From Candidatus Cloacimonadota bacterium (GTDB taxonomy: Bacteria; Cloacimonadota; Cloacimonadia; Cloacimonadales; Cloacimonadaceae): DNA of 44,115 bases. This document shows positions 20,133 to 40,153 of this stretch, one piece after another (within the stretch, counting starts at the first letter, position 1; each line of letters begins with the position of its first letter). The notes beneath the pieces were generated by a model that searched no databases, had not been told where the DNA came from, and saw nothing but the letters and a program-made list of their open reading frames with translations. Made by a program: the position numbers and the translations under genes. Location: NCBI GenBank assembly GCA_028681035.1, contig JAQUJJ010000015.1:1-44115 (forward strand). The letters run 5' to 3'.

Positions 20133-20441
20133 CAGAAAACACGTTTTCGCAACCGGCAATGAAAGCGAGTCTGGAGTTCAAAGAGCCATTCCTGTCTTCA
20201 TATATACCTATAGTTTATTGGCTCTTTGGACTTTTACATGAAAGCGATTTGTGTCTGGAGTCCTTTGTGCCTATGCTAATTATATGTCCACCTATAACTT
20301 AACGGCACACTGGACTTCAGGAAACACTTTCATTATCGGTAGCGAAGGCAAGGCTTCAGTCAAGTTCAGCGATATCCCCTTGTTTTCTGAAGTCCAAAAT
20401 GCCGCTAAGATACAGGTAGCTATAAAGATATAGGAGGCACT
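20133..20441. other. Repeat-filled intergenic region before the dehydrogenase
   Basis: About 309 bp consist almost wholly of one single 62-nt hairpin (20173-20234) and one inverted pair (20257-20318 and 20389-20450). A 60-codon open frame here lies inside the repeats and is not taken as a gene. Confidence 0.7.
20173..20234. repeat. Single 62-nt hairpin element
   Basis: GGAGTTCAAAGAGCCA pairs with TGGCTCTTTGGACTTT around a loop containing TATATACCTATA. The length and end sequences are the same as in the paired copies. Confidence 0.6.
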
Positions 20442-20450
20442 TTGAACCCC
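20257..20450. repeat. Paired 62-nt hairpin element, copy 2, overlapping a gene start
   Basis: The left half is 20257-20318, the right half 20389-20450 in inverted orientation; the inner flanks continue as a near-perfect inverted repeat (GGACTTCAGGAAACA against TGTTTTCTGAAGTCC). The right half contains the AGGAGG and TTG start of the dehydrogenase gene. The inverse of 20389-20430 matches 26599-26640 with only about two differences. Confidence 0.65.
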
Positions 20451-21425
20451 AAAACACATAGCGTTCATGTAAAGCCCAAATTGTTATTGACTCGCCTCAT
20501 CCCCGAAGCAGCTATTGAACGGTTGCGTGAACATTTTGAGCTAAGCGTAAACCCACACGATAGCCCGCTTTCTCATGCAGAATTATGTGCAAAAGTAGTT
20601 GATGTGCAAGCCTTGATTTGCCTGCTTACCGATACAATCGATAAAAGCGTGATCGATTCAGCCCCTCATCTGAAAGTGATTTCCGCCTATGCCGTGGGCT
20701 ATAATAACATAGATGTGGAATATGCCACGTCTAAAGGAATAGCCGTGTGCAATACCGCAGGAGTGCTAACCGAAAGCACCGCCGACCTTGCCTGGGCTTT
20801 GATTATGGCAACCTGCCGCAGGATTACGGAAAGTGAAGCGTTTTTGCGTGCAGGGAAGTTCAAAGCTTGGGAACCAATGATGATGTTGGGGCAGGATGTA
20901 TTTAGCAAGACACTGGGCATTTTGGGCATGGGCAGAATCGGACAAGCTGTCGCCAAACGCGCTACTGGCTTTGGCATGAGGATAATTTATTATAGTTCTT
21001 CACCCAAAGAACTGCCCTTCAAAGCAGAAAGAGTGGAGCTTGACACCTTGCTGTGCGAATCGGACATCCTTTCTTTGCATGCCCCGCTTACCCCAGAAAC
21101 CAAGCATCTGATTGGGAAAGCTGAAATCGCCCTGATGAAACCCACCGCAACCTTGATAAACACAGCACGGGGTGCAATTGTGGACGAACCAGCACTAATC
21201 GCTGCCCTTAGCGAAAAAAGGATATTTGCCGCTGGCTTTGATGTTTACGAAGAAGAGCCACATATTCCCGCTGCGCTATTAGCTTTGGACAATGTGGTGC
21301 TGCTCCCACATATCGGTTCTGCCAGCATTGCCACACGCATTAACATGGGTATCATGGCTGCCGAAAACGCCCTTGCTGTAATCGAAGGAAGAACACCGCT
21401 ATCGCAGGTGAATAAGCTCGGATAG
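20442..21425 (+). CDS. D-2-hydroxyacid dehydrogenase (glyoxylate/hydroxypyruvate reductase-like)
   Basis: The protein has 327 residues, normal for the family. The start is TTG at 20442, with AGGAGG ending 4 nt before it; no in-frame ATG is near, and the conserved part begins at KPKLLLTRLIPE. The Rossmann motif is GILGMGRIGQAVAKR (about 165-179). The catalytic triad is visible: Arg in NTARGAIVDE, Glu in DVYEEEP, and His in LLPHIGSAS. It reduces 2-keto acids such as glyoxylate or hydroxypyruvate with NAD(P)H, or runs the reverse reaction. The substrate cannot be chosen from sequence alone. Its translation start is inside a repeat element, which is unusual. Confidence 0.9.
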   Translation: MNPKTHSVHVKPKLLLTRLIPEAAIERLREHFELSVNPHDSPLSHAELCAKVVDVQALICLLTDTIDKSVIDSAPHLKVISAYAVGYNNIDVEYATSKGIAVCNTAGVLTESTADLAWALIMATCRRITESEAFLRAGKFKAWEPMMMLGQDVFSKTLGILGMGRIGQAVAKRATGFGMRIIYYSSSPKELPFKAERVELDTLLCESDILSLHAPLTPETKHLIGKAEIALMKPTATLINTARGAIVDEPALIAALSEKRIFAAGFDVYEEEPHIPAALLALDNVVLLPHIGSASIATRINMGIMAAENALAVIEGRTPLSQVNKLG

Positions 21426-21605: not shown

Positions 21606-22373
21606 ATGCAAAAACTAAAGGATTTAGACAGACTTCATAAGAGCTACAGTACTCTTTTGGTATCACTTAAAAACCATAACATTATCCAAGCTGAGACTTC
21701 CACAAAGGAAATTCTTGAGTTGCAAGATGGATTTTGGGAAAAAGTAAACACCTACATAGAAAGTGCCACTCCCGAAATAGAAGATTTGAAGAACAAATAC
21801 AACGATAACCAAGCTTATGCTGATGTATTAATGCCAATGCTGCTCTCTAGAAGTATCCCTGTGGAAATAGACGGTACTAAATTATTGATTGGTCCCATGG
21901 ATATAGAAATACATGTGAATGAGCATTATCTGCAAATCTCAATGGGACGCAAGAAACTAAGGGTGAGCAATCTGGAACCAGGATTGGTAGTTAAGCTAAT
22001 CGAAAAAACCTATCGTAAACTTAATAGCTCCTTCAATGCAAATAGTTTCTTTAAACGTCTGCTAAAGGCTTATGGTTTTGTTAATACCAGAATGTATTCA
22101 TCCAGAGAGGTAAAATACGGTTTCAGTGTGGCACTTAAAGAACTTTTCGATCTCTTTACGCTTTCACCCGCAGCCAGCGATTACAAGCTGGAAAACTTCC
22201 TGTGGGATATCGGCAGATTAACCGCCACCACCAATTTTGATAACTACCGTCTGGAGCTTGGTTATAGCCGTGATGTAAACAAAATGTACATCATTAAAAC
22301 CGCAAGTGGGGAAACGATAAAAGCCTCTACCATAACTATTCATAAAGAAGTTCCGCAAGATGAAAGCAAATAA
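21606..22373 (+). CDS. First gene of the BrxD/BrxL-like cassette, unknown function
   Basis: The protein has 255 residues and I do not recognise the family. Residues 1-60 are helical and coiled-coil-like (DLDRLHKSYSTLLVSLKNHN). A beta-rich part (about 80-130, VEIDGTKLLIGPMDIEIHVN, then YLQISMGRKKLRVSN) leads to a helical middle and a beta C-terminus. No cysteine pairs, nuclease or transmembrane motif are visible. AAGGAGAG lies 5 nt before the ATG. It overlaps the next gene by 14 bp, so it is part of the cassette. Its position in front of the ATPases resembles the small accessory BrxA/BrxB/BrxE-like genes of BREX loci, but I see no sequence match. A TTGACA at 21538-21543 may belong to its promoter. 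Confidence 0.72.
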   Translation: MQKLKDLDRLHKSYSTLLVSLKNHNIIQAETSTKEILELQDGFWEKVNTYIESATPEIEDLKNKYNDNQAYADVLMPMLLSRSIPVEIDGTKLLIGPMDIEIHVNEHYLQISMGRKKLRVSNLEPGLVVKLIEKTYRKLNSSFNANSFFKRLLKAYGFVNTRMYSSREVKYGFSVALKELFDLFTLSPAASDYKLENFLWDIGRLTATTNFDNYRLELGYSRDVNKMYIIKTASGETIKASTITIHKEVPQDESK

Positions 22374-23544
22374 AGAAGATTTAGAAGCCCTGCAAGGCGG
22401 CTTTCCTCCTAAAGACCCGGATTTAATTGAGTATCTCACGGTTCCCAATGAATGGCTGGAGCTGATGAAGAACTATTGTTTGAATCAAGTTATAGCAGCA
22501 GGTGGGAGCAAGGTTAAGATACTGTACGGTGGCAAGGCGACAGGTAAATCCCACTTCCTGCAAGCTCTAAAAGTTCATGCTGCCAGGGAAGGGTTCTTTG
22601 CCATAGACCTTGATATTTCACAGATTAGCTTTCACCTTACAGATTCCGTTGCTTTTTACAAAGCTGTGGTAGCACAGGTAGATTTGGAAAAGCTGGAAGA
22701 GACGCTTAGCTCTAAGATACTGGATAAACTTGGCTACAACCTTCAGGATTTCACTTCCTTTGGGGGTGCGCTGATGGATTATCTGTGCGAAAGGGAACAA
22801 TCTAACCCCGAACAAGCGAAGAAGGATATTAGAACTTGTGTGCATAGTATTGTGAATTCATTGGAACTGGAGTTTTCCTTTCGCAAGTTTATGCATATGT
22901 TTATGGAAGCTGTGGTGGAAAAAGATAAAGACTTTATGGCAATTGCTCGCGATTGGATACGGGGAGAGAAGATAGCAAGCCCCTATAAAAGATCGAGTAT
23001 GTTACATGAAACTCTTGCTAAGCACAATGCTCGCAGTTGGTTATATTCACTGGTAGAGATACTTAAGTTCATGGGCTATAAGGGCGTGATAATTCTGCTT
23101 GACCAATTTGAAGCAATCCTGCCCAAATCGGAGGCGGTGGTGCATTACACACCCATGAGACGAAATGATGTGTATGAGCTTATTCGGCAACTGATTGACG
23201 ACATGGATTTCTTTCCCAATACCTTAATTGTTATCTCTGGAAGCCGAGAGATATTTGAAGATGAGAAACACGGCTTAGCTAGTTATCATGCTTTATGGAT
23301 GAGGATACAGCCTGGTTTTGAACAATTGCAGAACCTAAATGTCTATTCAGATTTAATAGATTCGGACCTGATATTCCATAACATGCAGCTAAACGGACAA
23401 ATGGAACCACTAAAACAAAAGCTTTTAGAGCTTGGCGTACAGCCTCCCTATGCTGCCGATGATAGGGAAACTAACCGTGGCTTTGATTACCAAAACTTTA
23501 GGGAACTGCTTAGCACTAAAGGCTTTTGGACTGGGGAGAGATGA
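22360..23544 (+). CDS. BrxD-like (DUF2791-type) P-loop ATPase, first copy
   Basis: The protein has 394 residues. Walker A GGKATGKSHF begins at residue 57, directly followed by a helix and FFAIDLDISQ. Walker B is VIILLDQFEA, with Asp at 248 and Gln instead of the usual catalytic Glu next to it (Glu follows two residues later). The spacing of FYKAVVAQV, ARDWIRGEKIA, GYKGVIILLDQFE, SGSREIFEDEKHGLASYHAL matches the pattern I know from BrxD, the BREX P-loop protein (for example a WLRG motif, a GYKGL-D box, and a PEF-D-RGLYSY stretch). The overlaps with neighbours (14 bp and 1 bp) suggest a stoichiometric complex. BrxD is assigned by remembered motifs, not by a search. Confidence 0.75.
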   Translation: MKANKEDLEALQGGFPPKDPDLIEYLTVPNEWLELMKNYCLNQVIAAGGSKVKILYGGKATGKSHFLQALKVHAAREGFFAIDLDISQISFHLTDSVAFYKAVVAQVDLEKLEETLSSKILDKLGYNLQDFTSFGGALMDYLCEREQSNPEQAKKDIRTCVHSIVNSLELEFSFRKFMHMFMEAVVEKDKDFMAIARDWIRGEKIASPYKRSSMLHETLAKHNARSWLYSLVEILKFMGYKGVIILLDQFEAILPKSEAVVHYTPMRRNDVYELIRQLIDDMDFFPNTLIVISGSREIFEDEKHGLASYHALWMRIQPGFEQLQNLNVYSDLIDSDLIFHNMQLNGQMEPLKQKLLELGVQPPYAADDRETNRGFDYQNFRELLSTKGFWTGER

Positions 23545-24851
23545 TGGTAGAAAACTACGAAAATAGTGAACATAACCGCATGGTTCTGCTTTTAGAGGCT
23601 GTCCGAGCAGGAATCCCTACCCGTAGCTTAGTAGGTGCGTTGCCAGACCTAAGACAGAAACTGACCGATAGCATTGATACCGACCTGGAAGGCTTGGCAG
23701 GCGGTAAACAAGTAAAAGGAAGAGTGATTTGGGGAAGCTATGGACAGGGGAAAACGCATTTCCTGAAAACCGTGGAAAAGCGTATTCTGGAGCAAGGCTT
23801 TGCCGTCAGCTACTTTTCTTTAAACCGAGATTTGGGGCTTAACAACCTCTTTAACCTTTTCCCAGCTTTGTCTTCACATGTGCTTACCCGTGAAACCAAT
23901 ATCCCGGGGCTTTTAAATCAGCTTGCGGGGCATAGGTTATCTCTGCCTATGTTAGAGACGCTTTTTGAGCTTTGCAGCGGGATTAGCCATCCTCTTCCTC
24001 GGCTAATCTTTGAGAGCTTTATCAAATACGATGCCAATGAAATGATTCTTCTTTACAATGCTCTGATGGGTAAAAAAGAGAACATTACCGTTGCCAAACA
24101 ACTCGTTAGGTCTTTCCAGAAATTTGAGTATAAAAAGATGCCAAAGTTTGTCCAGAGGGAACACCTAATCTCTTTTGTAGAATTCTTTTCGCTGTTGGTG
24201 AAGAGCCTCGGCTATAAAGGATGGGTAATCCTCATCGACGAGCTGGAAATTGTAGGCAGAATGGGCAGAGTGAGCAGGCTGAACTCCTATAAAAACCTTT
24301 CGTGGCTGATGAATCTTAGTGGAGAACACAAGCTGCCCATTTATACTCTTGTGGCTTCAGCAGATGCCCTGAATGCAGATGTCTTCCGCGGTGCCAGGAA
24401 ACAAGATGCCATAGAGATGCCAATATTAGCCCAAGAGAGATTCGGGGACACAACAGCTAAGCTGCTTACTAAGTTCTTTGATCTTATAACAGGCTCTCAA
24501 GGTATGGTTCTTACCCCACTTAAGCCAAAGGATTATATCGTGCTGCTGGATAAATTGCTGGAAATCCACCAAGAAGCCATTCCCTGGAAACATGAACTGC
24601 CGGAAAACATGGTGCAGGATACTCTGAAACGCATTGACCCATCCACCAAGCCAGTACGCCAGATACTTAGAATGTTCATTGAGACCCTCGATCTATATTC
24701 CACAGTGGGAATCATCCCAGGAAAGTTTAACGACAACCTTCAGGAATTGTACGATTTTGATAGTGAGCTTCCCCACCTTCCGGAGGAAGATAGCAACAAC
24801 GAAACAAGTGGTTTCAGGGAAACACCTCTGAAAGACATGTTTGATGCGTAG
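23544..24851 (+). CDS. BrxD-like (DUF2791-type) P-loop ATPase, second copy
   Basis: The protein has 435 residues from the ATG at 23544, which overlaps the previous stop by 1 bp; GGAG lies 5 nt upstream. ATGs at 23541 and 23526 are alternatives. The N-terminus (HNRMVLLLEAVRAGIPTRSL) resembles the BrxD start, which precedes the nucleotide site. Walker A is GSYGQGKTHF (G64-T71), followed by GFAVSYFSLNRDLGLNNLFN. Walker B is VILIDELEIVG with Asp 232 and an intact Glu. A KFVQREHLISFVEFFSLLVK helix precedes GYKGW. It is more canonical than the first copy. Two divergent paralogues in tandem suggest a heteromeric ATPase. The next gene is 18 bp downstream. Confidence 0.8.
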   Translation: MVENYENSEHNRMVLLLEAVRAGIPTRSLVGALPDLRQKLTDSIDTDLEGLAGGKQVKGRVIWGSYGQGKTHFLKTVEKRILEQGFAVSYFSLNRDLGLNNLFNLFPALSSHVLTRETNIPGLLNQLAGHRLSLPMLETLFELCSGISHPLPRLIFESFIKYDANEMILLYNALMGKKENITVAKQLVRSFQKFEYKKMPKFVQREHLISFVEFFSLLVKSLGYKGWVILIDELEIVGRMGRVSRLNSYKNLSWLMNLSGEHKLPIYTLVASADALNADVFRGARKQDAIEMPILAQERFGDTTAKLLTKFFDLITGSQGMVLTPLKPKDYIVLLDKLLEIHQEAIPWKHELPENMVQDTLKRIDPSTKPVRQILRMFIETLDLYSTVGIIPGKFNDNLQELYDFDSELPHLPEEDSNNETSGFRETPLKDMFDA

Positions 24852-24869
24852 GCACAAGCGGAAATAGAC

Positions 24870-26354
24870 TTGACCTCCATAGATTACCCTACTATTATCT
24901 TAGACGACAAGATAAAACGGGTATTCCCGCGGGAATCCGTTTATAAAAACCCGGATATTTATGACGTGTTTGTGGGGCGCAATCTGCCTTCGTACATCAA
25001 AGATTGGATGGTTAAGTGCTTTACTGATGAAGATATCTTCGACCAAGAAGCCTGCATCGGCTTTATCAATGACAAAATACCCAGAAAAGGCTTGGGCTTA
25101 CGGAAGAGATTACTCCACAGCAGAGCACCAATTCAAATATTCTCTCGTTTAATTATCCAAACTGACCTGCTGCATGGCAAGATGGGCTTTTCCATCCCTG
25201 ATTTGGGAATTGGTCACAAAGAAGGCATTGTATCCATGAACATGGCTCAAGACAAGATAGAACAGTTGCACGAAGGCGAGATATGGGGGGTTCTGACGCT
25301 TACCTACAAAGCTCCCACACCGGGCATGAATGGCTATGTGGAGCTTACTGATTTCCGACCTTTTGAGCCGTATCAAGTGGAGATAGATTACTTTCTGGAA
25401 GCCAGAGGGAAATTCACTACCGATGAGTGGGTTGATGTGCTAATCCGCTCGATGGAAGTGAACCCGAATTATGTTGATCCAGGAAGAGGCTTAACCTTTA
25501 ATCTTGCCCGTAAACTTACCATGTTATCCCGGCTGTTGGTGCATGTGGAACCCAATCTTAATATGATTGAGCTTGCCCCCAAGGGTACGGGTAAATCCTA
25601 TGTTTTCAACAACCTTTCCAAGTTTGGTTGGACAGTTAGCGGTGGCATAGTTTCCCGTGCGGGAATCTTTTACAACCTTAGCACCAAGACACCAGGCATA
25701 ATCCATAACTATGACTTCTTGGCATTGGATGAAGTAGAGACGATTCAGTTTTCCAACGATGAAGATATCCTGGGAGCATTCAAGAACTATCTGGAGAATG
25801 GTAAGATTGTGGTGGGGCAATATAAGAATGTGTCCGATTGCGGTCTTATGCTGCTTGGCAACATCTCTCTAAATAGGCAGTTACAGCCTCGCCATGAAGA
25901 TTTCTTTGCGCACCTGCCCAAGTTCTTCCATTCTTCTGCGTTGGTAGATCGCATCCATGGCTTTATCCCCGGCTGGATTCTATTTAGGTTCACGGAAGAC
26001 CTCAAATTAAGAGGATACGCTCTAAATACCGAGTATTTCTCCGAAATTATGCACCTACTGCGCTGCCAAACAGAATCGGGGCAGATAGTTCAAGAGGCTT
26101 TGCAGATACCCCAAAATGCCGATACCAGAGACACGAAAGCAGTGATAAAGCTATGCACAGCTTATATGAAGTTGCTGTTTCCTCATGTGAGATCGCTTGA
26201 GGAGATTGCGCCAGAGACTTTTAAAGATTACATTCTTACTCCTGCTTTGCGTAGCCGCGGTATCATCAGGCAGCAGCTTGCCACTATGGATGCGGAGTTT
26301 AGCCCCGAAATGCCTGATATTAAGCTGAGAAAAAGCTATTTAGCAGCAACGTAG
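24870..26354 (+). CDS. BrxL-like AAA+ protein lacking a Lon-type C-terminal domain
   Basis: The protein has 494 residues from a TTG start at 24870; no ATG lies nearby and the ribosome-binding site is weak. The N-terminal domain (about 1-200: FVGRNLPSYIKDWMVKCF, FSRLIIQTDLLHGKMGFSIP) fits the BrxL N-domain. The AAA+ core has NMIELAPKGTGKSYVF with Walker A at G239-S244, SGG, Walker B FLALDEVETIQFS with Asp 287, YLENGKIVVGQYKN, LMLLGNI, and the hallmark VDRIHGFIPGW near 360. BrxL of BREX is roughly 650-700 residues with a Lon-protease-like C-terminus; this protein ends about 130 residues after the AAA+ hallmark with no Ser-Lys dyad region. A DNA-binding motor role is inferred. It closes the four-gene cassette. 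Confidence 0.83.
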   Translation: MTSIDYPTIILDDKIKRVFPRESVYKNPDIYDVFVGRNLPSYIKDWMVKCFTDEDIFDQEACIGFINDKIPRKGLGLRKRLLHSRAPIQIFSRLIIQTDLLHGKMGFSIPDLGIGHKEGIVSMNMAQDKIEQLHEGEIWGVLTLTYKAPTPGMNGYVELTDFRPFEPYQVEIDYFLEARGKFTTDEWVDVLIRSMEVNPNYVDPGRGLTFNLARKLTMLSRLLVHVEPNLNMIELAPKGTGKSYVFNNLSKFGWTVSGGIVSRAGIFYNLSTKTPGIIHNYDFLALDEVETIQFSNDEDILGAFKNYLENGKIVVGQYKNVSDCGLMLLGNISLNRQLQPRHEDFFAHLPKFFHSSALVDRIHGFIPGWILFRFTEDLKLRGYALNTEYFSEIMHLLRCQTESGQIVQEALQIPQNADTRDTKAVIKLCTAYMKLLFPHVRSLEEIAPETFKDYILTPALRSRGIIRQQLATMDAEFSPEMPDIKLRKSYLAAT

Positions 26355-26435
26355 CGCAGTACGCCAGAACTCCAAAACCCCAAAACTTCAGCAACACAAA
26401 TCCACTGCGTAATGGTGACTAAAACAGCTTTCTTC

Positions 26436-26518
26436 CTTGCTTGCATTGCCCTATCATTGCCCACTCATTGTCCATGTGGAGGGCAATGGGTGGGCAATGA
26501 TAGGGCAATGCCCGCAAG
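26436..26518. repeat. Second copy of the 38-bp-arm inverted repeat
   Basis: Arms 26436-26473 and 26481-26518 enclose the same loop ATGTGGA as the copy at 16931. The right arm inner 30 nt are identical to that copy; the left arm carries a few changes, leaving about four mismatched or wobble positions. Confidence 0.88.
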
Positions 26519-26578
26519 AATTATAGCTTTGTCGTGCCGGGAACAGAAGAATTGAATTCCAAAAGCTTTCTCCAGCTT

Positions 26579-26736
26579 GGAGTTCAAAGTGCCTCAGCTA
26601 TCTTTATATCTACCTATATCTTAGCGGCATTTTGGACTTCAAGCGTGCTCCTGGCAGCTTTGTGCCGCTTTTTGAAGTCCGTTTCGCCTTGAAACTGGGA
26701 GTAAAGGATGAAATAAGGATAGGCGAATTGAACTCC
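26579..26736. repeat. Paired 62-nt hairpin element, copy 3
   Basis: The left half is 26579-26640 (starting GGAGTTCAAAGTGCC and ending GGCATTTTGGACTTC), the right half 26674-26736 inverted. The left half matches the inverse of the half at 20389 almost base for base. Confidence 0.62.
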
Positions 26737-28823: not shown

Positions 28824-28911
28824 AAATCCTTCTTCATAGTTTTCTTTGATGGCGATGCTGACGGCAATGGCATATCCGTCAAGCAATATCTCCTATGGCA
28901 TTCCCCCTTCA

Positions 28912-29156
28912 GGGAAAACAGGCGTCTCGCTTGTAGTGGAAAACCAAGCGTCTCGCTTGTAGTGGGAAAATAGGCGTCTCGCTTGTACAGGAAAAACAGG
29001 CGTCTCGCTTGTAGTGGAAACCTAAGCGTCTCGCTTGTAGTGGAAACCTAAGCGTCTCGCTTGTAGTGGAAAAATAGGCGTCTCGCTTGCAGTGGAAAAC
29101 ATCCATCTCGTTTGCTTAGCAGGCAAGATGCCTGCTTTTCCTGTATAGGCGAGACG
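28912..29156. repeat. 26-bp-period palindrome array (about 8 exact units plus 2 variants)
   Basis: The core GCGTCTCGCTT starts at 28922, 28948, 28974, 29000, 29026, 29052 and 29078, exactly 26 bp apart, with a degenerate unit at 29104. Each unit is a short palindrome (AAGCG-TCT-CGCTT) plus a spacer such as GTAGTGGAAAA. Two further palindromes follow (GCAGGCA-AGA-TGCCTGC and AGGCG-AGA-CGCCT). It is not a CRISPR: there are no unique spacers. The same palindromes recur at 35313. Confidence 0.85.
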
Positions 29157-29205
29157 CCTATAACTCCTATGTCCTGCAACGGGATTCATCCTGGGCTCAT
29201 TCCTA

Positions 29206-29345
29206 TTAGGCATTCTATGCGACTCTTAGGCATTCTATGTGATTCTTAGGCATTCTATGTGATTCTTAGGCATTCTATGTGATTCTTAGGCATTCTATGT
29301 GATTCTCAGGCATTCTATGTGACTCTTAGGCATTCTATGTGACTC
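29206..29345. repeat. 20-bp tandem repeat, 7 units
   Basis: The unit is TTAGGCATTCTATGTGATTC with T/C variation at a few sites. The period is exactly 20 bp over 140 bp. Confidence 0.92.
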
Positions 29346-33336: not shown

Positions 33337-34824
33337 TTACTCTCGCTCATCAATATTATTACCATTAGTGTTATTCCTAATCCTTGCCCTAAAAGTATGT
33401 GGTTTCAATCCCAACAATCTTGCTGCTTCTGCAGCATTACCTTTTGCCTTTTTTAATGCAGCGTTATAATAGGCTGGGATTATTACATTGTCCAAATCTA
33501 TGCCCTCGGTGGGGATTTCTATGCTGCAGTTGTTATCTGTTTCGCTTGGCAGCATAAGATCATCAGCTTGGATTACACTTTCCATGCTATTGATGAAGGC
33601 AAGCTTAACCAAGTTCTGCAATTGCCGCACATTACCCGGAAAGCTGAAGTTCAGTAGTTTCTTCTCTGCTGCGGGAGAAAAGCGTTTATCTGTTCTGTAT
33701 TGGGCAGCATAGCTTTTAAGGAAATGGCGTACTAACAGGATAATATCGGTACCACGCGCTCTTAGCGGGATCAGATCAATTTCATATTGCACCAGGCGGT
33801 AAAACAGGTCTTCGCGAAACTCTTCTTTTTGCACCAGAGCTTTCAGGTCTTTATTACTGGCGCTGATAATGTTCACTTTCACCGTTTTGGCTTTTCCGCC
33901 CACGGGCATAATGCTGCCGCTTTCCAGCACCCTTAGCAGTTTCACCTGCATGGGCAGAGGTAGATCACCTATTTCATCCAAAAACAGCGTGCCTCCATTG
34001 GCTTGGGAAAAGTAACCTTCATGGTCAGCTATCGCACCGGTGAAGGAGCCTTTTTTATGGCCAAAGAATTCGCTTTCGAACAGACTGGGGCTAATGGAGC
34101 CACAATTTACGGCGATAAATGGCTGCTCTTTGCGCGGGCTGTGATAGTGCAGCAGCTTTGCCACCACTTCTTTGCCCGTTCCACTTTCTCCGCTTATAAA
34201 CACGGGGATTTCGTATTTCACCAAATTGGCTATTTGTTGTTTAACTTGGGAGATAGATTCGTGTTCGCCTAAAAGCTCATCGCACCCGAGGTTTAACTGT
34301 TGTTTTAGGAGTTTGTTCTCACGGCTGCTTTGGGTAAGCTGGATTTTGATGGCTTTGGTGTTTTCCAGTTTGGGAAAGTCGTCCAGCTTGAAATCTATTT
34401 CTGAGATACCTTGTTCCCTCGACACCTGAATTAGGCGTGCCGGAATAATCCCTCCCTGCGCGATCAGCACCCAACAGGAATGCATCGTGGGGGTGCCGGA
34501 GGTAAGAGAGATCGTGTACTCTACATCTTTGATTCCCTCTTCTTTCTGGATTTCAGTTATTGCCCTGATCATCGCAGGATATACGATATTGTAATCAATC
34601 GGATTTATCGATTCTGCTTCTTGGTATCGCACCGTTAGTTGGGGATATTTATGCCTGCAATAAAGCAGTATTTCAGAGGCATGCTGAAGATAGTGTGTAT
34701 CATTGTAAAGAATATACAGTGCATCAAATTCCCGCAGTTGCAGGATGCTAAGTATCGCGCCCTCTTTTCCCTGGCTTAGCAGGCAGTCATTGTTGCCGAT
34801 GAATGTTAAGAGTATTTTCTTCAT
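33337..34824 (-). CDS. Sigma-54 activator with N-terminal CARF/RtcR-like domain
   Basis: I prefer the ATG at 34824, which starts at MKKILLTFIGNND as CARF domains usually do; the ATG at 34842 would add 6 residues. The protein has 495 residues. Residues 1-165 have the CARF-like Rossmann pattern, including ISLTSGTPTMHSCWVLIAQG and IPARLIQVSR. The AAA+ sigma-54 domain (about 180-415) has GESGTGKEV near 211, GSFTGA in place of GAFTGA near 256, and [14 protein letters not shown] Fis-type HTH follows (EAARLLGLKPHTFRARIRN). It probably senses a nucleotide or RNA-derived ligand and fires the -24/-12 promoter at 33233. RtcR, which senses RNA damage, has the same domain order; the ligand here is not known. 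Confidence 0.86.
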   Translation of the reverse strand: MKKILLTFIGNNDCLLSQGKEGAILSILQLREFDALYILYNDTHYLQHASEILLYCRHKYPQLTVRYQEAESINPIDYNIVYPAMIRAITEIQKEEGIKDVEYTISLTSGTPTMHSCWVLIAQGGIIPARLIQVSREQGISEIDFKLDDFPKLENTKAIKIQLTQSSRENKLLKQQLNLGCDELLGEHESISQVKQQIANLVKYEIPVFISGESGTGKEVVAKLLHYHSPRKEQPFIAVNCGSISPSLFESEFFGHKKGSFTGAIADHEGYFSQANGGTLFLDEIGDLPLPMQVKLLRVLESGSIMPVGGKAKTVKVNIISASNKDLKALVQKEEFREDLFYRLVQYEIDLIPLRARGTDIILLVRHFLKSYAAQYRTDKRFSPAAEKKLLNFSFPGNVRQLQNLVKLAFINSMESVIQADDLMLPSETDNNCSIEIPTEGIDLDNVIIPAYYNAALKKAKGNAAEAARLLGLKPHTFRARIRNNTNGNNIDERE

Positions 34825-35312
34825 AGACTCTATAGTTAGCATAAGGGTTAATTAGTCAAGAAGTAATAATTATGGCTTTCGCACATGCATTTGTTCGTCC
34901 ATTTTTTCACTAAGTCCCGTTGGTATCGTAGGCAAATTGCACATAACTGCGTTACGCAAATAAGCGTAATTGAAATGCTCGCTTTAGGTTACATCAAAAA
35001 GCAGCATGGCATTCACCAAATATATTTCAGAATTCGAAAGATTTATTGGCTTTTTGTCCCAAATTGTCAGATTTGTCCCCCTTACATTATAGAAGTAGTT
35101 CTTTGATGTGTATATAGGTGATTGTACCCGTAGGTACAATAAGTCGAGAGGTCGAGAAGTGAAGAGGTAACAAAGTGATGAAGCTGGCGTAGCGCAGGAT
35201 GCTGTTACTGTGAAAGTAACGAGCTATCTGACGGTGTAATCCCTTTGGCTGTAAAAATTAGATATCCGTATAATATAAGCGATAGCCAAATCGATTCCAC
35301 ACTTCCGGAATT

Positions 35313-37894: not shown

Positions 37895-40153
37895 TCAGGA
37901 ATCTATAAGGTAATCCTCTTTCCTAATTTTGAATTTGCTTACTCGGCGTTCGACGCCTTTGGCAGATATTCCCAGAAGATTTGCTGCTTTTGCCTGATTG
38001 AAACCCGTGCTCAGCAGGGCTTTTACCAGCATGGTCTTTTCCATCTCGTGCAAGGGATAGATATGGTTTTCGGCAACAACTATCCCAGGTTTGGCTTCAT
38101 GCATGGCAAAATGCTTTATCTGCAGACATTGGCTGTCGCACATAATCATTCCTTTTTCTACCATGTTGGCAAGCTCCCTTACATTACCGGGGAAATGGTA
38201 GCGGGAGAGTGCATTGTAAACTTCCGGATCAATCCGCCGGACGCTCTTCTTTAGTTTTTGCTGATAATAACGCACGAAGTGTTCTGTAAGTACAGGAATA
38301 TCTTCTCTGCGCTCCCGCAGGGGAGGAATGTTTATCACAAATACTGCTAGGCGGTGGTACAAATCGGAACGGAAAGCCTTTTGTTCAATCAATTCTTCCA
38401 AGTTTACATTCGTGGCAGAGATTACTCTTATGTTAACGGCTATTTCCCTTCTTGCACCAACCCTGATGATATTCCTGCCATCCAGGGCGCGGAGCAGCTT
38501 GATTTGCTGATCGACAGGCATATTGCCGATTTCGTCCAGAAACAGAGTTCCATTGTTTGCCACTTCAAACCAACCTGGCTTCATCGAATCTGCACCGGTA
38601 AAAGCTCCTTTCTCGTGTCCAAAGAATTCGCTTTCGAAAAGAGTGGATGAAACCGCAGAGGCATTTACAGCATAGAAATAGTGGCTTTTTCTGGAACTCA
38701 TCTCGTGTATTCCGCGTGCCACAAGCTCTTTGCCCGTGCCGCTTTCACCAGTTATCAAGACGGAGGTATCATCTGTATAAGCTACCTTGCGCATCAATTC
38801 CAGGATATTCTTCATTGCCTCGCTAACCCCTACAATACGGTTGTAACCGGTATGCTGTGATAATTCATTTTTTACAAAAGACAGTTTCAATTCACTTTTT
38901 CTCAGGTCAGCCAGAGTGTTTTCCAGAGCCGCTTTTTGGCTTTCTATCAGATGGTTTTTTTTCTCCAGTTCGCTGTTTATTGTGCGGATATGTTCAAGTT
39001 CTTGTTCCCGTTTGTCCAGCTCCAATTTTGTTTTCATCTCGGCAAGGTTGGATGATTTTTCTTCTTCCCAAAGGGTCTTTATTCTCGTTAGATACTCGTT
39101 AAGATATTCCAGTGCTTGCGCTGAATCTCCCAATGCGCCAAACGCCCGGGATAGGTAATGATAAACTTCAGCAAGTATCACTGGACGCTTAATCCCGCAA
39201 GCCAGTGCTTCTTGAAGGTGGTTCACTGCATCCTGCGGTTTCTTTAGCATCAGGCTGGATTTGCCCAGATTCAGCAGAGAACTGGCAATATAATCGCTAT
39301 CATTTAGAGTTTGCCTGATCTGAAGTGCTTTTTTGTGGTATGTCAAAGCATTTACATAATCTTCCTGCTGATAGTATAGGTTACCGATACCATTTAATAC
39401 TAAAGCAACTGCCGTGTTTTCCTGGTTATCCTCCCTGATTTGCAAGGATTCGTTGAAGCAGCTTAACCCTTGTTCATAATTTCCGATAGATGCGTAGGCA
39501 ATGCCCAAAACATTTAACATCTTTGCCAAATTCCGCTTATCTTCTTCTTGTCTAAAAACCTCGATTGCTTGGTTGCCAAAGTCAATACTATGGTCGTATT
39601 CCTGCAATTCAGTGTATATTATAGCCAGATTGTAGCAGGATGAGCCTATCCCCGGCAGGGAATGCTCTCTCCTTAGTTTCATGGCACGGTAGCAGTACTC
39701 AAGGGCAAGATGGAACTTCCCCAGATAGGTATAGCATTCTCCCAGATTATTAAGCACAGCGCAGCGCGTATCAATATTTACGCTATCATCCATATTATCC
39801 AATGCAAGCCGGTATAGCGTGGCAGCCTGCTCGTACTCTTTCATGTTGAAGTATGTAAAAGCCCGATAATGCCGTATCAAAACTGACCTGGAGGGATTAT
39901 CCAGTTGCTCGAAGTATATTTCAGCTTTATCAAGTAACGACAAAGCAGTAGGGTAATCCTGGCTACAAAAATAGCGATAAAACTCTAAATAGTATAAAAA
40001 CCCCAAGTCCTCTGGGTGCTGAGAATCTGCGATGATTTCCCGCATTTGCCCAATGCACTTGTCCCCGTCATCCAGCTTTCCCCTGCGGTAAAAGTTCAGC
40101 GCAGAATTTAAGATAAGCTGGTATAGCCCAAATTTAGATTCGTTAACACTCAT
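37895..40153 (-). CDS. Sigma-54-dependent activator with N-terminal TPR array
   Basis: The protein has 752 residues. Residues 1-370 are TPRs (for example [60 protein letters not shown]). A coiled coil spans about 370-430 ([20 protein letters not shown]). The AAA+ domain has GESGTGKEL near 468, GAFTGA near 516 and [13 protein letters not shown] near 535. A Fis-type HTH is at the end ([20 protein letters not shown]). There is no receiver domain, so protein or ligand binding at the TPRs probably controls it. An AGG-containing site lies about 10 nt before the ATG. Its nearest plausible target is the -24/-12 promoter at 37601. Confidence 0.9.

What the first reader, a model, noticed from the sequence alone, without database searches (positions are those of the whole stretch)
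21606..26354. Compact four-gene BrxD-BrxD-BrxL-like cassette without methyltransferase or PglZ
Two tandem divergent BrxD-like P-loop ATPases and a BrxL-like AAA+ protein follow one unknown gene, with overlaps of 14 and 1 bp and an 18-bp gap, so they likely form one complex. In known BREX loci such proteins act with BrxC, PglX and PglZ, none of which is here, and BREX loci normally carry one BrxD. Flanking repeat pairs (20257 and 26579) suggest the block is an insertion. A minimal defence or replication-blocking module that does not need host methylation is a reasonable hypothesis.
Basis: partly seen in the sequence, partly recalled or inferred. Interest (0 to 1): 0.82.

Follow-up and report, generated by a model that had tools for sequence, protein, structure and literature searches.

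The report
Stand-alone BrxD pair with BrxL motor
A four-gene bacterial operon joins two origin-recognition-type ATPases and an unknown partner to a ring ATPase that looks borrowed from a phage-defence system, so it is probably a small immune machine, with no DNA-modification gene of its own, in which one motor was swapped for another.

Summary
The four-gene cassette is real. g1 is unknown; g2 and g3 are BrxC_BrxD-family ATPases; g4 is a BrxL without Lon domain. No PglZ, BrxC or modification gene was found beside it. It recurs in 4 of 124 Cloacimonadota genomes, complete in three, which have other flanking genes. One of them shows no long BrxP match and no BREX-sized PglZ.

It belongs to a wider family that I did not find in print: g1-like protein X, BrxD1, BrxD2, then a variable motor: BrxHI/SngC-type helicase, SNF2, SF1 helicase or, here, BrxL. 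X, D1 and D2 are inherited together (r 0.92-0.96). The cassette's D1 and D2 nest among SNF2/SF1-coupled pairs, its BrxL inside type-4 BREX BrxLs. A motor swap is the best reading. D1 has DQ for the catalytic DE (5 of 5); D2 kept DE (4 of 4).

Best model: an ORC/Cdc6-like loader (X-D1-D2) puts an MCM-like ring (BrxL) on foreign DNA and blocks replication. The architecture is shown; loading, targeting and defence are inferred.

The parts
21606..22373 (+). g1 = X, 255 aa, unknown family; predicted N-terminal helices, central alpha/beta part, C-terminal part loosely like winged helices
22360..23544 (+). g2 = D1, 394 aa, BrxC_BrxD-family P-loop ATPase; Walker A intact, Walker B reads DQ in place of DE
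   Evidence: PF10923 3.6e-32; motif table; same DQ in L001
23526..24851 (+). g3 = D2, 441 aa from the first TTG (435 aa from ATG 23544), BrxC_BrxD-family ATPase with intact Walker A and B; ORC/Cdc6-like predicted fold
24870..26354 (+). g4 = BrxL, 494 aa, N-terminal BrxL domain plus AAA+ ATPase, no Lon-like domain; Walker A and B intact
   Evidence: TIGR02688 8.8e-124 above cut-off; PDB 8EMC BrxL E 4.7e-43; nested in type-4 BREX BrxLs; motifs
26426..26528 (.). long hairpin just after g4, possible transcription terminator or palindromic repeat element
   Evidence: arms 83% complementary; RNA fold of 26420-26530: -71.6 kcal/mol, z -12.7
20388..20452 (-). hairpin repeat element (copies also at 20172-20233 and 20256-20317), at the start of the dehydrogenase gene
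26577..26641 (+). fourth copy of the hairpin repeat element, downstream of the cassette
   Evidence: 91% identical inverted copy of 20388-20452; z -6.8

Best explanation
The operon encodes a compact DNA-acting machine outside BREX. X, D1 and D2 form one inherited unit that works like an ORC/Cdc6-type initiator: D2 is the hydrolysing ATPase, D1 an ATP-binding but probably hydrolysis-deficient partner, and X probably adds DNA contact or sensing. In sister systems the unit is coupled to helicases or to SNF2 motors. Here it is coupled to a BrxL taken once from a type-4 BREX, probably of the same phylum. Most likely the unit recognises invading or replicating foreign DNA, assembles the MCM-like BrxL ring on it and stalls its replication, with no host-modification gene in the operon. 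Shown: gene content, recurrence, co-inheritance, tree positions that fit a motor swap, motif states, predicted D2 fold. Inferred: complex formation, loading, DNA target, self/non-self rule, immunity.
Confidence: 0.5

Rival explanations
1. The same machine serves replication, repair or chromosome upkeep rather than immunity, for example restart of stalled forks.
For: ORC- and MCM-like parts are replication parts; in the window the cassette lies beside metabolic genes; tandem D-D pairs without X or motor occur in five genomes (L130, L132-L135; their neighbours were not scanned).
Against: Patchy presence, 4 of 124 genomes; other flanks in L055-L057; BrxL source is a defence system; sister motors match ZorD, DpdE, SngC and BrxHI, and the SNF2 protein of L117 carries an Mrr nuclease domain.
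Confidence: 0.22
2. It is an effector arm that needs a modification or a BREX system encoded elsewhere in the cell.
For: G041 has a PglZ in an 860-residue frame beside a long BrxL, G043 a further PglZ hit (657-residue frame) and a long BrxL, G001 pieces of a type-4 BREX. All seven genomes tested have a PglZ-domain match.
Against: G031 shows only short BrxP matches, one PglZ-domain hit (590-residue frame) and no second BrxL. G041 and G043 have only short BrxP matches. Draft genomes, so absence is weak.
Confidence: 0.13
3. It is a decayed BREX locus that has lost PglZ, BrxC and the modification gene.
For: BrxL and BrxD-family genes are BREX families.
Against: The four genes are open and in the same order in L055-L057. 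D1 and D2 group with X-D-D pairs outside BREX. PMC12839542 limits BrxL to types 1 and 4 and lists BrxD for type 2, so no BREX type described there combines them.
Confidence: 0.04
4. X-D1-D2-BrxL is an abortive or toxin-like device in which BrxL acts on host DNA after a trigger sensed by X.
For: X has no known family, which leaves room for a sensor (inference).
Against: No nuclease or other toxic domain in the four proteins; BrxL's known action is DNA binding with ATPase activity.
Confidence: 0.11

Closest known systems
Type-4 (phosphorothioate) BREX: BrxP-BrxC-PglZ-BrxL
   Same: BrxL is of this type: short, no Lon domain, nested in its tree.
   Different: No BrxP, BrxC or PglZ; two BrxD-family genes and X instead.
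Type-2 BREX dyad BrxD-BrxHI
   Same: BrxD-family ORC/Cdc6-like ATPase next to a motor.
   Different: Two divergent BrxD paralogues; motor is BrxL; none of the other type-2 components.
Shango (TerB-like SngA, ATPase SngB, helicase SngC)
   Same: g2 and g3 match SngB (5.6e-18, 1.6e-13); sister cassettes carry helicases that match SngC and, better, BrxHI; compact set with no modification gene.
   Different: X replaces SngA, two ATPases not one, BrxL not SngC; the eight single-BrxD rows labelled Shango in the tree form their own group (89/92).
X-D1-D2-motor cassettes found here (L075-L080, L116-L120, L122-L127, L129, L131, L140; no name found)
   Same: Same three-gene core in the same order; D1 and D2 largely orthologous; X homologous.
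   Different: Motor is an SF2 helicase, a long SF2-SF1 fusion, SNF2, SF1, or none in view.
Archaeal/eukaryotic ORC-Cdc6 and MCM
   Same: D2 predicted fold near archaeal ORC2; BrxL is MCM-like.
   Different: No sequence-level membership; loading of BrxL by D1/D2 is untested.
PbeABCD (CxC ABC-ATPase system)
   Same: Four genes; reported to halt virus DNA replication.
   Different: Unrelated proteins.

Membership tests
BREX | PglZ in the locus | tested here: not met
   No PglZ among the four genes or the flanking genes scanned
BREX | BrxC/PglY large ATPase | tested here: not met
   Only BrxD-sized (394, 441 aa) members; PADLOC matches are BrxD and SngB (and a weak PDC-S20), not BrxC
BREX | Modification enzyme (PglX or BrxP) in the locus | tested here: not met
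   None among the window genes scanned. Elsewhere in the cassette genomes: only short BrxP matches in G031, G041, G043; long ones in G008, G038, G106 and, in pieces, G001
BrxL protein family | Above the curated BrxL cut-off | tested here: met
   413.6 bits against 329.3
BrxL, type-4 form | N-terminal part plus AAA+ only, no C-terminal extension; tree position | tested here: met
   494 aa, Pfam match ends at residue 480; nested among type-4 rows
BrxC_BrxD (PF10923) | Above Pfam gathering score | tested here: met
   112.3 and 88.5 bits against 22.2
BrxD equivalog (NF033438) | Above curated cut-off 350 bits | tested here: not met
   86.1 and 45.5 bits
Shango | TerB-like SngA | tested here: not met
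   g1 has no PADLOC match and no Pfam match above threshold
Shango | DEAD/DEAH helicase SngC | tested here: not met
   Motor is BrxL
X-D1-D2-motor cassettes | X homologue, D1 and D2 in this order, with a motor beside them | tested here: met
ORC/Cdc6 AAA+ | Fold of D2 | tested here: met
ORC/Cdc6-MCM loading pair | Loader puts the ring on DNA | not testable with these tools
   Needs complex prediction or biochemistry
PbeABCD | HKD-SF2 helicase PbeA, CxC ABC-ATPase PbeC, DndE-like PbeD | tested here: not met
   Pfam results of the four proteins against the published parts
Anti-phage defence system | Reduces phage infection | not testable with these tools
   No published test of this cassette came up in the ten searches listed in Tried and rejected

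The most novel reading that the evidence does not exclude
Bacteria possess a general immune loader, X-D1-D2, with an exchangeable motor slot. In Cloacimonadota it has become a true counterpart of ORC/Cdc6 plus MCM: a heteromeric loader with one pseudo-ATPase and one active ATPase closes a BrxL ring around invading DNA to stop its replication, and does so without marking host DNA.
Probability: 0.3. Interest if true: 0.87.

Novelty: new variant of a known kind. Interest (0 to 1): 0.68.

Why it matters
How BREX stops phage replication, and what BrxL does there, is unsettled, in part because BREX needs many parts and a host mark. Here a BrxL works, by inference, with only two BrxD-family ATPases and one unknown protein. 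That makes the proposed ORC/Cdc6-MCM-like loading step directly testable in four genes. The wider X-D1-D2 family would tie BREX, Shango and SNF2-, SF1- and helicase-based sets together as one kind of loader with interchangeable motors.
Full report
OBSERVATION. The window holds four co-directional ORFs, g1 21606-22373, g2 22360-23544, g3 23526-24851 and g4 24870-26354, with a 14-bp overlap, a 1- or 4-bp overlap depending on which g3 ATG is used (19 bp from the TTG), and an 18-bp gap. g2 and g3 belong to Pfam BrxC_BrxD, g4 carries BrxL_N and BrxL_ATPase, and g1 has no family. In PADLOC g2 matches BrxD then SngB, g3 matches SngB then BrxD, and g4 matches BrxL at 2.8e-182. In NCBIfam only g4 passes a curated cut-off.

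RECURRENCE. A BrxL scan of one genome per species gave 51 loci. One, L001, has the end of g2, g3 and g4; the others match only g4. g1 has 31 relatives by single-sequence search (32 rows with itself) and 49 rows by profile search; the four whose source name gives an organism are Cloacimonadota (P0018, P0130, P0138, P0145). In 124 genomes of that phylum the g1 profile finds 3 and the g3 profile 7. Four of the 7 are the BrxL type: complete in L055, L056 and L057, cut by the contig end in L001. Three are a helicase type, L075, L076 and L077. BrxL itself occurs in 20 of 124 genomes, but copies of 66-73% identity only in the four cassette genomes. The flanking genes of L055-L057 do not match those of the window, apart from one 27% match of a large protein in L055.

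A FAMILY WITH A VARIABLE MOTOR. The g3 profile has hits in 5 of 49 genomes of the BrxL loci (L010's genome is not held), 5 of 300 of the class of Sporomusa and 25 of 297 of the phylum of G147. The regions from all of these genomes and from six of the seven (G001 being L001) were mapped, 40 loci in all. 23 of the 40 hold X with a BrxD-family pair, counting L140, whose second ATPase is broken. The motor beside it is BrxL in 3 (plus the window), a BrxHI/SngC-type SF2 helicase in 8, a long protein with SF2 and SF1 helicase matches in 4, a co-directional SNF2 protein in 4 (in two pieces in L120), a divergent SNF2 protein in 2, an SF1 helicase in 1, and none in 1. Of the other 17, L121 is the long-helicase type with X out of view, five have a D-D pair without X or motor, seven are Shango-like (large SngA-like protein, one BrxD, helicase), two have one BrxD and a helicase beside other large genes, one (L128) has an X-like gene, one large D and a helicase, and one (L136) has no D by this profile. 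Motor identities were checked for a sample by Pfam and PADLOC: L075, L077, L078, L079, L080 and L117, L124, L126. The SNF2 protein of L117 ends in an Mrr-type nuclease domain.

X IS ONE FAMILY. A profile built only from the BrxL-type X proteins (A1) finds X of L140, L078 and L116 at 1e-37 to 5e-34, of L079 at 1.4e-9, of the four SNF2-type loci at 4e-8 to 5e-5 and of L077 at 3.4e-7; it misses the other helicase-type X proteins. Profile-profile comparison links BrxL type to HELa (1.4e-8) and to SNF2 (1.7e-7), HELa to HELb (2.4e-21) and SNF2 to HELb (4.6e-10). The direct BrxL-HELb comparison fails, as does the control against D2 (probabilities 1.2% and 0.4%).

CO-INHERITANCE AND MOTOR SWAP. In a tree of 66 ATPases, 28 of 29 D2 rows lie on one side of a 100/97 branch and the D1 rows on the other, together with the eight single-BrxD (Shango-labelled) rows and D2 of L124, which groups with its own D1. 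The sub-clades largely mirror each other. BrxL-type D1 and D2 are each one clade (100/100, 100/99), next to L078 and L116 (100/98, 100/100), within a clade of SNF2, SF1 and motorless types (100/99, 99/96). Distance matrices of X, D1 and D2 correlate at 0.92-0.96, 0 of 2000 permutations as high (28 and 23 loci); species history contributes to this and was not removed. In the BrxL tree (60 rows) the five cassette BrxLs form a 100/100 clade on a long stem inside type-4 BREX BrxLs, with two Cloacimonadota type-4 rows at 100/98; in both of their genomes BrxP lies on the same contig. Type-4 labels rest on PglZ-, BrxC- or BrxP-like genes in the locus: 51 of 60 loci, 16 of them by PglZ alone, six of these with E only 1e-8 to 1e-5; 4 of the 9 without are the cassettes. 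L002 and L010 were confirmed as BrxP-BrxC-PglZ. So the simplest history is one recruitment of a type-4 BrxL by an X-D1-D2 set whose relatives use SNF2 or SF1 motors.

ACTIVE SITES. All 29 D2 proteins in the table keep Walker A and the DE of Walker B. D1 of the cassettes keeps Walker A, but Walker B reads DQ in 4 of 4, and in the fragment of L001, so 5 of 5. In the wider clade D1 has DD (L078, L079), DN (L116), or has lost Walker A and the glutamate (L117-L120). In AAA+ proteins this glutamate is the catalytic base (general knowledge). In BrxL a change of the ATPase site (E280Q among the mutants) abolished phage restriction according to PMC10164562 (abstract and passages seen). D1 is therefore probably an ATP-binding, poorly hydrolysing partner, as in ORC, where not all subunits hydrolyse ATP (recalled). 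BrxL of the cassettes keeps its ATPase motifs, and 87 positions are the same in all 5 cassette sequences and in at least 90% of 26 type-4 sequences chosen for the comparison.

STANDING ALONE. PglZ-domain matches occur in 7 of 7 genomes tested, six of them with a frame of 523-590 residues, perhaps PorX-like regulators (inference from size, not tested). G031 has only such a hit, one BrxL (in the cassette) and only short BrxP matches. G041 has a further PglZ in an 860-residue frame beside a 691-residue BrxL; G043 has a second PglZ hit (657-residue frame) and a 693-residue BrxL elsewhere; G001 has separate type-4 pieces. These are draft genomes, so absence is weak evidence.

CONTEXT. PADLOC defence candidates lie near the cassette in L055 (PDC-S01), L056 (PDC-M45B, C and A in a row) and L057 (PDC-S60, residues 6-176 of 402) (10 neighbours chosen, no control set). 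In the window the nearest neighbours are a 2-hydroxyacid dehydrogenase, a nitroreductase and an M29 peptidase, and PADLOC finds no system there.

LITERATURE. PMC12839542 (abstract, outline, sections 19 and 34, and passages) places BrxL in types 1 and 4 and describes BrxD as a type-2 component and ORC-Cdc6 ATPase that may load BrxHI. In the passages seen it names no BrxD-BrxL set, and its text has no hit for Cloacimon, TerB or Shango. PMC10250203 (passages) reports Shango as anti-phage, with modest effect on many phages. PMC6459918 and PMC10853773 (passages) define Pbe. PMC13092281 (one passage) and PMC10952713 (one passage) add nothing on this cassette.

JUDGEMENT. A real, conserved operon outside BREX, related to Shango-like loader-motor sets, with a BrxL recruited from type-4 BREX. 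Immunity by BrxL loading is the best-supported reading and remains untested.

Noticed in passing
window 33337-34842 (-): RtcR-like sigma-54 activator with a CARF domain (PADLOC RtcR_PspF2 CARF_AAA_HTH, 2.1e-128), about 7 kb after the cassette; a TPR sigma-54 activator lies at 37895-40153.
   Followed up: no
window 26426-26528: Very stable hairpin with a 31-bp inner stem built of GGGCAATG-like units just after g4 (z -12.7).
   Followed up: partly
window 28884-29300: Two tandem arrays of 26-nt and 20-nt units in the gap upstream of the M29 peptidase gene.
   Followed up: no
L130, L132, L133, L134, L135: Tandem BrxD-family pairs without X or motor in view; both members form clades near helicase-coupled pairs.
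   Followed up: partly
L117-L120: An unknown gene of 185-188 aa between D2 and an SNF2 protein in all four loci; no Pfam or PADLOC match in L117.
   Followed up: no
L122, L123, L125, L126: Giant 1790-1960-aa motor proteins (L122 runs to the end of the fetched stretch); L126 joins a BrxHI-like SF2 helicase to an SF1 (AAA_11/AAA_12) helicase.
   Followed up: partly
L140 7400-9200: X and D1 with a broken D2 beside a divergent SNF2-SWIM-like pair, in the same class as Sporomusa; looks like a decaying copy.
   Followed up: no
G001 C285 and C249: Pieces of a type-4 BREX (BrxP parts, and a BrxL with one internal TAG) in the genome of L001, apart from the cassette.
   Followed up: no
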